Assembly (NCBI GenBank): GCA_020438845.1
Contig: JAGQTV010000044.1
Location: forward strand, 1 to 64,000
DNA length: 64,000 nucleotides
Origin: Mycobacterium sp.
Lineage (GTDB): Bacteria; Actinomycetota; Actinomycetes; Mycobacteriales; Mycobacteriaceae
Direction: 5' to 3'
The position numbers were made by a program, and so were the translations under genes. Below are positions 26,351-31,173 of this stretch, in pieces. How positions within the stretch are numbered: the stretch's first letter is position 1; the number at the start of each line of letters is the position of its first letter. The notes below the pieces were generated by a model, which worked only from the letters and a program-made list of their open reading frames with translations, made no database searches and was not told where the DNA came from.

Positions 26351-28600
26351 TTGCTCGCCCGCATCGCCCGGATCGCCATCGCCGCTCCGCGACGGGTGCT
26401 CGTTCTCGCGGTGCTGCTGGCCGCCGTGATCGGCGCGTTCGGGGTACCCGTTGCCCAGCACCTGTCGCCAAGTGGGTTCCAGGACCCGGGTGCCGAGTCG
26501 TCCCGGGCCGCTGCGCTGCTGAACCAGAAGTTCGGCCAGGGTGACGTTCCGTTGGCGATTGTCGTCACCGCGCCGGACCGTTTCGACAGCCCGCGGGCCC
26601 GTGCTGTCGCCGAAGACATCATCGAGACCCTGAAACGCTCGGGCCATGTGGCTGCGATCAATTCGGCCTGGACGTCGCCCCCGCAGGCCGCCGCGGCGAT
26701 GGTCAGCAAGGACCGCAGGTCCGGGCTCATCACCACCGGCATCGTCGGAACCGAGGACCAGCAGCAGACCTACACCAAGGACCTGACCGACCAGATCGAC
26801 GGTGAACGCGACGGAATAGCGGTGCGGTCCGGCGGCATGGCCATGGTCAACCTGCAGATCACTGAGCAGTCCAAGCGTGACCTGGTGGTGCTGGAGTCCA
26901 TCGCGGTGCCTTTGAGCTTCCTGGTGCTCATCTGGGTTTTCGGTGGACTTTTCGCCGCTGCGCTGCCGGTGATCGTAGGAGCCATGGCGATTCTCGGCGC
27001 CCTGGCCGTGCTCCGCACCGTCACGCTGTTCACCGAAGTGTCGATCTTCGCGTTGAACCTCACCTCCGCGATGGGTTTGGCGGTGGCCATCGACTACACG
27101 CTTCTGATGCTCAGCCGCTACCGCGACGAGTTGGCCGAGGGTGCCAGCCGGGAGCAGGCCGTGGTCACCACCTTGCTGACCGCCGGGCGCACCGTGCTGT
27201 TCTCCGCGGTCACGGTCGCGCTGTCGATGGCCATCATGGTGGTGTTCCCGATGAATTTCCTCAAGTCCTTCGCCTACGCCGGCGTAGCCACGGTGACGTT
27301 CGCCTGCCTGTCGGCCTTGGTGGTCACCCCTGCGGCCATCATGCTGCTCGGCGACCGTATCGACGCCCTCGACGTGCGGCGTCTGGTGCGCCGACTGACG
27401 GGTCGGCCCGAGCCGGTGTCGAAGCCGATCACTGAACAGTTCTGGTACCGGTCAACGAAATTCGTGATGCGCCATGCCGTGCCGATCGGCCTGGTGGTGA
27501 TCGCACTGCTGGCTGTGCTTGGTGCGCCGTTCCTGGGCGTTCGTCCGGGCTTCCCCGATGACCGGGTTCTCCCGAAGTCGGCCTCGGCCCATCAGGTGGG
27601 GGATCTGCTGCGGTCCGATTTCGCACTGGACACCGATTCTGAGGTGGCTGTGGTCATTCCCGATTCCGCCGGGCTGAGCGCGAACGAGGTGAGCCGGTAT
27701 GCCGCCGATCTTTCCCGCGTACCCGACGTGAACTCGGTGTCGGCGCCGGCGGGAACGTTCGTGGACGGAAACCTGGTTGGGCCGCCAAGGGGTGCCACCG
27801 GGGTGTCACAGGGCAGCACGCTGCTGACGGTCGGCAGCGCCGCCGAAATGTTCACGCAGGCGTCGGAGAATCAATTGCAGAACCTGCACGAGGTCGACCC
27901 GCCCGGTGGTCGAGCGGTCGAGTTCGGCGGGTTGGCCCAGACCAACAGCGACAGCGTCGATGCGATCGTGTCCCGGCTGCCGTTGGCACTGAGCCTGATC
28001 GTCGCCATCATGCTGGTGCTGTTGTTCCTGCTGACCGGCAGTGTGGTGATGCCGGTGAAGGCGGTGATCCTCAACTTGCTCTCGCTGTGCGCGACATTTG
28101 GGGCGATGGTATGGGTTTTCCAGGACGGCCACTTCAATGCGTTGGGCACCACCTCGACCGGAACCTTGGTGGCCAACATGCTGGTGCTGCTGTTCTACCT
28201 CGCGTTCGGCCTGTCGATGGACTACGAGGTGTTTCTGGTATCCCGGATCCGCGAATTCTGGTTGGCGGCTGATGGCGCGGGAACCTCGGCCGACAACGAC
28301 GAGAGCGTGGCCCTCGGTCTTGCCCGTACCGGCCGGGTCATCACTGCCGCCGCACTCATCATGGCGATTTCGTTTGCTGCGCTGATGGCCGCTCAGGTGG
28401 CGGTGATGCGGCTTTTCGGCGTGGGCCTGACGCTGGCTGTCCTGATGGACGCGACCCTGGTGCGATTAGTGCTGGTACCAGCGTTCATGCACGTCATGGG
28501 CAGATGGAACTGGTGGGCTCCCGCACCGTTGCGGGCGCTGCACGAGCGGTTCGGCATAAGCGAAGCCGGAGATTCGCGGGCATACTCGAAGGGTGATTAG
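26351..28600 (+). CDS. MMPL-family RND transporter
   Basis: 749 residues, shorter than MmpL3 or MmpL11 (about 950) and lacking their C-terminal tails. TM1 (about 15-35) is followed by a periplasmic domain, a TM block with AIDYTLLMLSRYRDEL (about 246-261), a second periplasmic domain and a second TM block with GLSMDYEVFLVSRIREFW, the two D-Y pairs that carry protons in MMPL proteins. It probably exports a lipid. TTG 26351 is the only reasonable start. Its last 8 bases overlap the type III PKS gene, tying it to the quinone pathway. Confidence 0.9.
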   Translation: MLARIARIAIAAPRRVLVLAVLLAAVIGAFGVPVAQHLSPSGFQDPGAESSRAAALLNQKFGQGDVPLAIVVTAPDRFDSPRARAVAEDIIETLKRSGHVAAINSAWTSPPQAAAAMVSKDRRSGLITTGIVGTEDQQQTYTKDLTDQIDGERDGIAVRSGGMAMVNLQITEQSKRDLVVLESIAVPLSFLVLIWVFGGLFAAALPVIVGAMAILGALAVLRTVTLFTEVSIFALNLTSAMGLAVAIDYTLLMLSRYRDELAEGASREQAVVTTLLTAGRTVLFSAVTVALSMAIMVVFPMNFLKSFAYAGVATVTFACLSALVVTPAAIMLLGDRIDALDVRRLVRRLTGRPEPVSKPITEQFWYRSTKFVMRHAVPIGLVVIALLAVLGAPFLGVRPGFPDDRVLPKSASAHQVGDLLRSDFALDTDSEVAVVIPDSAGLSANEVSRYAADLSRVPDVNSVSAPAGTFVDGNLVGPPRGATGVSQGSTLLTVGSAAEMFTQASENQLQNLHEVDPPGGRAVEFGGLAQTNSDSVDAIVSRLPLALSLIVAIMLVLLFLLTGSVVMPVKAVILNLLSLCATFGAMVWVFQDGHFNALGTTSTGTLVANMLVLLFYLAFGLSMDYEVFLVSRIREFWLAADGAGTSADNDESVALGLARTGRVITAAALIMAISFAALMAAQVAVMRLFGVGLTLAVLMDATLVRLVLVPAFMHVMGRWNWWAPAPLRALHERFGISEAGDSRAYSKGD

Positions 28601-30160: not shown

Positions 30161-31173
30161 TCGACCTGATCGTCGCCGGCGGCGGTCCCGCCGGACTGGC
30201 CACCGCCACCTATGCTGCCCGTGCCGGTTTGCAGGCCGTGGTCGTCGAACGCCGTGCCGGCCCGATCGACAAGGCCTGCGGCGAGGGGCTGATGCCGCAC
30301 ACCGTGCGCCATCTGCGAGATCTCGGAGTCACGCTGAGCGGCAAGCCGTTTGGCGGCATCGCCTATCTGGACTCCACTCGCCGGGTCGAGGCCCGGTTCC
30401 GGTCCGGTGAGGGCATGGGGGTGCGTCGGACTGTGCTGTCCGAAGCCCTGCATACCGCCGCCGCGGCGGCGGGTGTGCGCGTGGTGCGCCACGATGTGGG
30501 GGAGGTCCGCCAAGACGCACACTCGGTCTGGTGCGGCGATCTGCGAGCGCGTTACCTGGCGGCCGCGGACGGTCTGCATTCCCCGATCCGCCGCACCCTC
30601 GGCCTCGACCGGCCGGACCGCGGCCGGCGGCGGTGGGGAATCCGGCGGCACTACCAGGTGTCACCGTGGAGCGACACGGTCGAGGTGCACTGGGCGGGCG
30701 GCACTGAAGCGTATGTGACGCCAGTCGCTGACGACACCGTGGGAGTGGCGATCTTGACCTCTGAGCAGGGCCGGTTCGACGGTCACCTCAGCGAATTTCC
30801 GGCACTCGCGGCACGGTTGGCGGCCGCCCCGCACGGTTCTGACCGGGCGGCCGGCCCGTTGCGACAGCGGGTCCGGCATCGGGGTGCCGGACGTATTCTG
30901 CTCGTCGGTGATGCGGCAGGCTACATCGATGCGCTCACCGGAGAGGGCCTGGGCATCGCCTTCGGAGGGGCTGAACTGCTGGTCGAATGTGTCCTGGCCG
31001 ACGCGCCCGGGGACTACGACCGACGGTGGCGGCGGATGTCGCGGCGGTACCGCCTGATGACTGCCGGGTTGCTGCAGGCAAGCGGAATTCCGCTGGTGCG
31101 GTCGATGATCGTCCCGGCCGCGGCCGCGCTGCCCGGAGCCTTCCGTGGAATCGTCAATCTGCTTGCGTATTGA
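30157..31173 (+). CDS. FAD-dependent oxidoreductase/hydroxylase (SrsC-like)
   Basis: 338 residues from GTG 30157, overlapping the methyltransferase stop by 4 bases (GTGA). FAD motifs in order: VAGGGPAGLATATYA (GxGxxG, about 6-20), the DG motif AADGLHSPIRRTLG (about 131-144) and LLVGDAAGYIDALTGEG (GD, about 248-264). It belongs to the geranylgeranyl-reductase/PHBH-like group. It would hydroxylate the methylated alkylresorcinol ring to a quinone, as SrsC does. Last gene of the four-gene unit. Confidence 0.87.
   Translation: MIDLIVAGGGPAGLATATYAARAGLQAVVVERRAGPIDKACGEGLMPHTVRHLRDLGVTLSGKPFGGIAYLDSTRRVEARFRSGEGMGVRRTVLSEALHTAAAAAGVRVVRHDVGEVRQDAHSVWCGDLRARYLAAADGLHSPIRRTLGLDRPDRGRRRWGIRRHYQVSPWSDTVEVHWAGGTEAYVTPVADDTVGVAILTSEQGRFDGHLSEFPALAARLAAAPHGSDRAAGPLRQRVRHRGAGRILLVGDAAGYIDALTGEGLGIAFGGAELLVECVLADAPGDYDRRWRRMSRRYRLMTAGLLQASGIPLVRSMIVPAAAALPGAFRGIVNLLAY

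What the first reader, a model, noticed from the sequence alone, without database searches (positions are those of the whole stretch)
26351..31173. Overlapping MMPL-PKS III-ICMT-FAD operon: probable polyketide-quinone pathway with its own transporter
The type III PKS, membrane methyltransferase and FAD hydroxylase are the same trio as Streptomyces srsABC and the mycobacterial genes reported to make polyketide quinones used as electron carriers at low oxygen. All four genes overlap by 4-10 bases, so the MMPL transporter is translated with the pathway and probably moves its lipid product.
Basis: partly seen in the sequence, partly recalled or inferred. Interest (0 to 1): 0.7.

Follow-up and report, generated by a model that had tools for sequence, protein, structure and literature searches.

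The report
Quinone-lipid operon with lipid transporter
An environmental mycobacterium carries a known set of genes for a quinone-like lipid joined to a gene for a lipid pump, and comparison with relatives suggests that the pump belongs to the pathway, which could explain where this lipid goes and what a poorly understood family of mycobacterial pumps does.

Summary
In detail: MMPL (26351-28600), type III PKS (28593-29654), ICMT-type methyltransferase (29645-30160) and FAD enzyme (30157-31173) overlap by 8, 10 and 4 bases. PKS-ICMT-FAD is the known polyketide-quinone (PkQ/Srs) trio; catalytic triad and resorcinol-type Trp are present. The new part is the transporter. Among the nearest relatives the MMPL precedes the trio in 49 of 61 checkable loci; among loci of other genera an MMPL is beside it in 1 of 43. 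In relatives MMPL and PKS carry their own SigL-type promoter: 17 of 57 and 26 of 57, none at six control gene sets; the motif also precedes a SigL gene. The two genomes found nearest to the model species M. smegmatis have no MMPL beside their trio. The MMPL is close to MmpL13, for which the review passages I read name no substrate. Close relatives add a catechol-type O-methyltransferase and an MddA-like membrane protein; here both lie on another contig. Product, transport and respiratory role are inferred. New variant of a known kind.

The parts
26351..28600 (+). MMPL/RND lipid transporter, 749 aa, close to MmpL13, related to MmpL3 without its C-terminal domain
   Evidence: Pfam MMPL 262.6 bits; best solved relative MmpL3, 329 bits, residues 15-738; Asp-Tyr pairs D248-Y249 and D624-Y625 invariant in 26 aligned sequences; tree
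28593..29654 (+). type III polyketide synthase, probably alkylresorcinol type
   Evidence: Pfam; best solved relative Pks11, 528 bits; C139, H278, N311 in 89 of 89 rows and W231 in 83 of 89
29645..30160 (+). ICMT-type integral membrane O-methyltransferase
   Evidence: Pfam ICMT 88.1 bits, scanned as a longer ORF from 29462; ICMT next to the PKS in 61 of 71 loci that hold 2.5 kb upstream
30157..31173 (+). FAD-dependent oxidoreductase/hydroxylase, geranylgeranyl-reductase-like
   Evidence: Pfam FAD_binding_3 62 bits, NCBIfam GG-red-SF 113.9 bits, below its cut-off of 158.8; both scanned as a longer ORF from 29866

Best explanation
The operon makes and exports a methylated redox-active phenolic lipid. 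The type III PKS condenses a fatty acyl-CoA with malonyl- and methylmalonyl-CoA to an alkylresorcinol; the ICMT-type membrane enzyme O-methylates it; the FAD enzyme hydroxylates it to the alkyl-hydroquinone/quinone (steps inferred from characterised homologues). The MMPL protein, a proton-driven lipid exporter of the MmpL3/MmpL13 branch, takes this lipid or its resorcinol precursor from the inner membrane towards the mycolate envelope (inferred). Shown here: the genes, their overlaps, the conserved catalytic residues, the link between MMPL and trio across the genus, and the shared SigL-type promoters in relatives. Not shown: product, substrate of the transporter, role in respiration, regulation in this genome, where SigL was not found.
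For: Trio families, triad and Trp (the Trp's role from PMC5916927, passages). MMPL upstream of the trio in 49 of 61 loci; all MMPL matches listed for the 80 loci are on the PKS strand; MMPL and PKS overlap in four separate loci. At the site of the smegmatis-type trio, 2 of 10 fetched loci (L123, L126) also have it. PKS-linked MMPLs are separate from the 14 unlinked MmpL13-type rows (branch support 96), and the window genome has both kinds. MMPL and PKS each carry TGAACC-N16-CGT in relatives: 17 and 26 of 57, both in 16; 0 of 43 PKS starts in other genera; 0 in six control gene sets. The motif stands upstream of a gene whose best solved match is SigL. A different MMPL (35% identity) sits beside the trio in another genus of the family (L135).
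Against: 12 of 61 trio loci lack the MMPL, as do 8 of 10 loci of the smegmatis-type site and 42 of 43 loci of other genera, so the trio can work without it. 30 of 57 linked loci, the window among them, have the motif at neither gene (window), and no SigL was found in the window genome. Co-divergence of MMPL with PKS (r 0.906) is only a little above that of the neighbouring Pat gene (0.812 with PKS, 0.849 with MMPL), so it counts for little. Pks11, the nearest solved PKS and with the same Trp, is named an alpha-pyrone synthase in its entry, so the ring type is not settled by sequence. A quinone this hydrophobic may not need a transporter to cross one membrane (general knowledge).
Confidence: 0.6

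Rival explanations
1. The trio makes a respiratory polyketide quinone that stays in the inner membrane; the MMPL carries a different envelope lipid and is linked only because both belong to the same SigL stress response.
For: Trio without MMPL beside it in 8 of 10 smegmatis-type loci and in 42 of 43 loci from other genera; published respiratory role in M. smegmatis, known to me through passages of PMC9927152 and PMC5916927; in 16 loci MMPL and PKS have separate promoters.
Against: Where linked, the MMPL is upstream on the PKS strand and overlaps the PKS gene in 4 of 53 loci; a distant MMPL beside the trio in another genus; a branch apart from the unlinked MmpL13 type.
Confidence: 0.25
2. The product is an envelope phenolic lipid (methylated alkylresorcinol or quinone) for the mycolate outer membrane and has no part in electron transport.
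For: MMPL linkage was seen only in the window's genus and one more genus of its family, not in the 39 class genomes sampled outside the family; MmpL proteins export envelope lipids (PMC6463170, passages); inactivation of srsA in Streptomyces griseus is reported to raise sensitivity to beta-lactams (PMC10896814, passage).
Against: The FAD enzyme that would give the quinone is present next to ICMT in 69 of 80 loci; extra methyltransferases in relatives fit a tuned redox headgroup as well as a structural lipid.
Confidence: 0.3
3. The operon is a decaying remnant in this lineage: promoter, SigL and two neighbouring genes are gone from the site and the second cluster on C5 does the work.
For: No SigL motif or SigL found; COMT and MT2 lie on C77; second PKS-ICMT-FAD cluster.
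Against: All four reading frames are intact, with catalytic residues kept; COMT and MT2 still have open frames as a divergent pair.
Confidence: 0.1

Closest known systems
pkqABC polyketide-quinone operon of Mycobacterium smegmatis (MSMEG_0808 and neighbours)
   Same: PKS, ICMT-type methyltransferase and FAD oxidoreductase in the same order; resorcinol-type Trp
   Different: The two genomes found nearest to M. smegmatis have the trio at another chromosomal site and with no MMPL beside it; PKS 65-66% identical. M. smegmatis itself was not among the genomes matched.
srsABC of Streptomyces griseus
   Same: Same kind of trio and inferred chemistry (srs cluster named in PMC5916927, passage; SrsA-SrsC roles recalled)
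   Different: No MMPL beside the trio in 39 class genomes sampled outside the family
MmpL13 (split as Rv1145/Rv1146 in M. tuberculosis)
   Same: Unlinked paralogues taken here as MmpL13 are 61-66% identical to the window MMPL and lie next to SDR and MCR genes
   Different: Separate branch; not adjacent to the PKS, although in four fetched loci (L130-L133) it lies about 7 kb, and in L182 about 2.7 kb, from another PKS-ICMT-FAD set
MmpL3
   Same: Closest solved structure by sequence, 329 bits; Asp-Tyr pairs aligned
   Different: No C-terminal cytoplasmic domain; far below the NCBIfam MmpL3 cut-off (393 against 1400 bits)
M. tuberculosis SigL targets pks10-pks7 and Rv1138c-Rv1139c
   Same: SigL-type promoters before PKS and MMPL in relatives; published SigL targets include P-pks10 and P-Rv1139c (PMC6372665, PMC13002591; passages)
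   Different: MMPL not named there in the passages I read; the window lacks the promoter

Membership tests
Polyketide-quinone (Srs/Pkq) operon | type III PKS with Cys-His-Asn triad | tested here: met
   C139, H278, N311 in window and 89 of 89 rows
Polyketide-quinone (Srs/Pkq) operon | Trp at the ArsB W281 position (resorcinol formers) | tested here: met
   W231 in window, 83 of 89 rows; Tyr in 6; role from PMC5916927 passage
Polyketide-quinone (Srs/Pkq) operon | ICMT-type methyltransferase and FAD oxidoreductase directly downstream | tested here: met
Polyketide-quinone (Srs/Pkq) operon | orthologous to the M. smegmatis operon | tested here: inconclusive
   no genome matching M. smegmatis itself was found; its nearest genomes have the trio at another site and on another PKS branch
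Polyketide-quinone (Srs/Pkq) operon | makes alkyl-benzoquinones | not testable with these tools
   needs mass spectrometry
Polyketide-quinone (Srs/Pkq) operon | product carries electrons at low oxygen | not testable with these tools
   needs mutants and respiration assays
MmpL cluster II (MmpL3/11/13) | no large D2 docking domain | tested here: met
   one co-linear sequence alignment with MmpL3 over residues 15-738; definition from PMC6463170 passage; no structure model could be made
MmpL cluster II (MmpL3/11/13) | large cytoplasmic C-terminal domain | tested here: not met
   residues 738-739 align with MmpL3 positions 748-754 and only about ten residues follow
MmpL cluster II (MmpL3/11/13) | proton-relay Asp-Tyr pairs | tested here: met
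   D248, Y249, D624, Y625 invariant in 26 rows; the role of the pairs is recalled
MmpL cluster II (MmpL3/11/13) | transports a lipid | not testable with these tools
   no assay
SigL regulon | TGAACC-N16-CGT upstream | tested here: not met
   absent in window; in other linked loci met at 17 MMPL and 26 PKS genes of 57

The most novel reading that the evidence does not exclude
The MMPL exports the polyketide quinone or quinol across the mycobacterial envelope, so that it acts as an outer-membrane or extracellular electron carrier in biofilms; the wider MmpL13 branch would then be transporters of type III polyketide lipids, which would give MmpL13 a substrate class.
Probability: 0.15. Interest if true: 0.75.

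Novelty: new variant of a known kind. Interest (0 to 1): 0.5.

Why it matters
Polyketide quinones were worked out in M. smegmatis. The two genomes found nearest to that species lack an MMPL beside the trio, so a part of the system that many other mycobacteria have may have been missed there. If the MMPL handles the lipid, the question of where these quinones act (inner membrane, envelope or outside) becomes a simple deletion test, and MmpL13, whose substrate is not given in the review passages that I read, gets a first hypothesis.

Tried and rejected
Considered and rejected: (a) a chance neighbour: excluded by recurrence in 49 of 61 loci. (b) That the MMPL is simply this genome's MmpL13: rejected, an MMPL next to SDR and MCR genes is on C48 and falls in the unlinked branch. 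(c) Mirror-tree correlation as proof of joint function: set aside because the neighbouring Pat gene gives r 0.81-0.85. (d) Pat (31213-32208) as part of the pathway: not adopted; among the loci searched it was found near the operon only in loci of the window's PKS branch, and in G077 and G345 it lies far from the trio. (e) A SigL promoter in the COMT-MT2 gap: 0 of 33. (f) DpgA as the identity of the PKS: NCBIfam 167.9 bits against a cut-off of 425. (g) The arc operon upstream as part of the system: beside relatives' operons only one ArcD (L009), a downstream arginine deiminase of 36-38% identity and, at the type-I-PKS loci, ornithine-carbamoyltransferase-like matches of 38-39% were seen.

Weak points of the counts: one search kept the best 80 of 339 relatives, so linkage counts are for the nearest relatives; the genus tables are cut off and I did not count adjacency from them; of 93 genomes outside the genus with a match I fetched 39; the gaps rest on start codons chosen nearest to the alignment. 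In one search the window was sorted with the unlinked and L182 with the other genera by a script error; one search has them right. L105 has TGAACT, so it fails the stricter pattern. L123 is left out of the PKS tree because its PKS is interrupted.
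Full report
OBSERVATION. The four ORFs are present, intact and overlapping by 8, 10 and 4 bases on the + strand. Families are MMPL, chalcone/stilbene-synthase-type PKS, ICMT and FAD_binding_3. The window lies on contig C21 of a 4.5 Mb genome, estimated 99.78% complete, whose nearest PKS relatives are mostly from records named as mycobacteria.

THE TRIO. The PKS has C139, H278 and N311, kept in 89 of 89 aligned rows, and W231, kept in 83 of 89; six rows without ICMT beside them have Tyr. PMC5916927 (passages) reports that Trp at this position marks alkylresorcinol formers (ArsB, FtpA, SrsA, PKS10, PKS11). The closest solved structure is Pks11, 528 bits, which its entry names an alpha-pyrone synthase. 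PMC9927152 (section 8 and passages) describes PKS, methyltransferase and oxidoreductase as the polyketide-quinone operon pkqA to pkqC of M. smegmatis. The original paper (Anand 2015) is not held; I saw nothing of it.

THE TRANSPORTER. The MMPL is 749 aa, aligns with MmpL3 over residues 15-738 (329 bits) and stops before the C-terminal domain. D248-Y249 and D624-Y625 are invariant in 26 rows. Of the best 80 of 339 PKS relatives, 71 loci hold at least 2.5 kb upstream; 61 of these have ICMT next, and 49 of the 61 have the MMPL upstream on the same strand within 2.5 kb. In 53 linked loci, the window included, MMPL and PKS overlap in 4, are 0-71 bases apart in 33, and 1.6-1.7 kb apart in 16. A genus search finds MMPL relatives at E 1e-120 in 142 of 148 genomes. 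In 14 fetched places without a PKS of this type in the stretch, the MMPL has an SDR gene beside it (14 of 14) and an MCR gene seen in 12 of 14; in L130 the MCR gene's best solved match is an alpha-methylacyl-CoA racemase, with the entry that names it MCR at nearly the same score. I take this as MmpL13; that mcr and mmpL13 are neighbours in M. tuberculosis is recalled. In a tree of 63 MMPLs the 14 unlinked rows form one side of a branch (support 96) against 49 linked rows; the root is not known. The window genome has both kinds (L092).

LOSS NEAR THE MODEL SPECIES. Two genomes whose Pat is 94-95% identical to the M. smegmatis protein (G077, G345) have one match each to the PKS at E 1e-20, in a PKS-ICMT-FAD cluster without MMPL beside it (L105, L122). 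Ten fetched loci of this type share an aminopeptidase gene on one side (10 of 10) and a permease gene on the other (8 of 10); nine of them, L123 not being used, form one group of a midpoint-rooted PKS tree. Of the ten, L123 and L126 have the MMPL between PKS and aminopeptidase and eight do not (L105, L107, L109-L111, L122, L124, L125). So the MMPL was probably lost in the lineage of the model species (inference; M. smegmatis itself was not matched among 396 genomes).

OUTSIDE THE GENUS. The PKS is found in 113 of 394 genomes of the class sample at E 1e-70 and in 20 of 251 of the family sample, 4 of these outside the genus. I looked at 43 loci outside the genus: those 4 and 39 of the 93 class genomes. 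One has an MMPL beside the trio: L135, 35% identical, downstream of the FAD gene. Flanks were about 6 kb for most; L136 and L168 lie on contigs under 7 kb. MMPL linkage is therefore, as far as sampled, a feature of the window's genus, with one separate case in its family.

PROMOTERS. TGAACC-N16-CGT stands within 150 bp upstream of the PKS in 26 of 57 MMPL-linked loci and upstream of the MMPL in 17 of 57 (both in 16; neither in 30, the window among them). Its first base is 61-65 bp before the MMPL start in all 17 and 40 bp before the PKS start in 19 of 26. In trio loci without MMPL it is before the PKS in 11 of 27; in the divergent PKS type in 5 of 9; in loci without ICMT in 2 of 10; in other genera in 0 of 43. 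Controls: ICMT 0 of 135, FAD 0 of 129, Pat 0 of 34, TspO 0 of 24, COMT 0 of 32, MT2 0 of 35. In all these loci the pattern occurs 83 times in 4,343,742 positions, 0.0029 per 150 bp. Fifteen of the 17 are one related group (L023-L047); L074 and L181 are others. The same motif precedes an ECF sigma gene in G004 (L210), whose best solved match is SigL, 279.9 bits; apart from a 92-residue sigma fragment at 129.7 the next entry has 57.7 bits. Published SigL targets include P-pks10 and P-Rv1139c (PMC6372665, PMC13002591; passages); that Rv1139c and Rv1138c are the ICMT and FAD genes is recalled. The window has no such site, and among 12 sigma-like hits in its genome the nearest to SigL over most of its length is 32% identical, against 71% for the G077 copy.

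EXTRA GENES IN RELATIVES. Of the 40 loci with PKS identity above 72.5%, 32 have a COMT-like gene and 35 an MT2 gene (minima, as some loci are cut short); five have neither (L009, L010, L016, L035, L048). Of the other 40, none has either. COMT matches solved catechol O-methyltransferases (E 9.8e-44). MT2 reaches only 73 of 270 bits of the MddA methyltransferase model and no Pfam family, so its being a methyltransferase is likely, not shown. In the window genome both exist as a divergent pair at C77:23913-25486. Relatives may thus make a more highly methylated quinone (inference).

SECOND CLUSTER. C5 holds another PKS-ICMT-FAD set (71%, 71% and 72% identity), followed by an acyl-CoA-ligase-like gene (named by eye). 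No MMPL of the window's kind is beside it, but an MMPL-family gene of another kind (about 1000 aa, with an MmpS-like partner by eye) lies about 3 kb away on the other strand. I did not follow this up; it is compatible with transport being part of that cluster too.

HOW IT MOST LIKELY WORKS. Resorcinol formation, O-methylation and oxidation are inferred from characterised homologues. Export by the MMPL is inferred from linkage, co-regulation in relatives and family function. Respiratory use is inferred only from the M. smegmatis literature.

PRINT CHECK. Searches for MMPL with type III polyketide synthase (two papers; passages of one read, the other seen only in the listing), MmpL13 (33 papers, 20 listed; passages of two read), alkylresorcinol/MMPL combinations (232 papers, 20 listed), polyketide quinone with transporter and other terms (15 of 1,269 listed) and SigL/polyketide quinone/alkylresorcinol/MmpL (10 papers, listing only) showed me no paper that links an MMPL to this operon. 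These cover open-licence papers only, and most hits were seen only as listings.

Noticed in passing
window 19531-24283: An arcD-arcA-arcB-arcC-like arginine deiminase operon (named by eye) lies upstream on the same strand; several relatives instead have a 36-38% identical arginine deiminase downstream of Pat/TspO.
   Followed up: partly
window 31213-32208 and 32989-33465: A lysine acetyltransferase Pat (best solved match 4ava) and a TspO-like protein (named by eye) follow the operon and are kept in many loci of the window's PKS branch.
   Followed up: partly
G000:C77:23913-25486 (L115): COMT and MT2, which neighbour the operon in relatives, sit here as a divergent pair away from it.
   Followed up: yes
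G000:C5 (L091 4924-13685): Second PKS-ICMT-FAD cluster with an MMPL-family gene of another kind about 3 kb away on the other strand.
   Followed up: no
L064 3942-10581, L066 4069-10572: Double cluster: a second PKS (50% identity) and ICMT precede MMPL-PKS-ICMT-FAD.
   Followed up: no
L130-L133, L182: A divergent PKS-ICMT-FAD set lies about 7 kb (L182: about 2.7 kb) from an MCR-SDR-MMPL group, a second, looser link between MmpL13-type pumps and this pathway.
   Followed up: partly
L123 about 8563: The PKS gene of G246 is interrupted by an in-frame stop while its MMPL frame is open.
   Followed up: no
L014, L017: Records titled Bifidobacterium breve carry loci that group with mycobacterial ones; probably mislabelled bins.
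   Followed up: no
L072, L081, L083, L085-L087: Six PKSs without ICMT beside them have Tyr instead of the resorcinol-type Trp; in L072 and L081 very long type-I-PKS-like ORFs follow.
   Followed up: no
G000: Only 12 sigma-like PF08281 hits, none SigL-like, against 33 and 48 in two larger relatives.
   Followed up: yes
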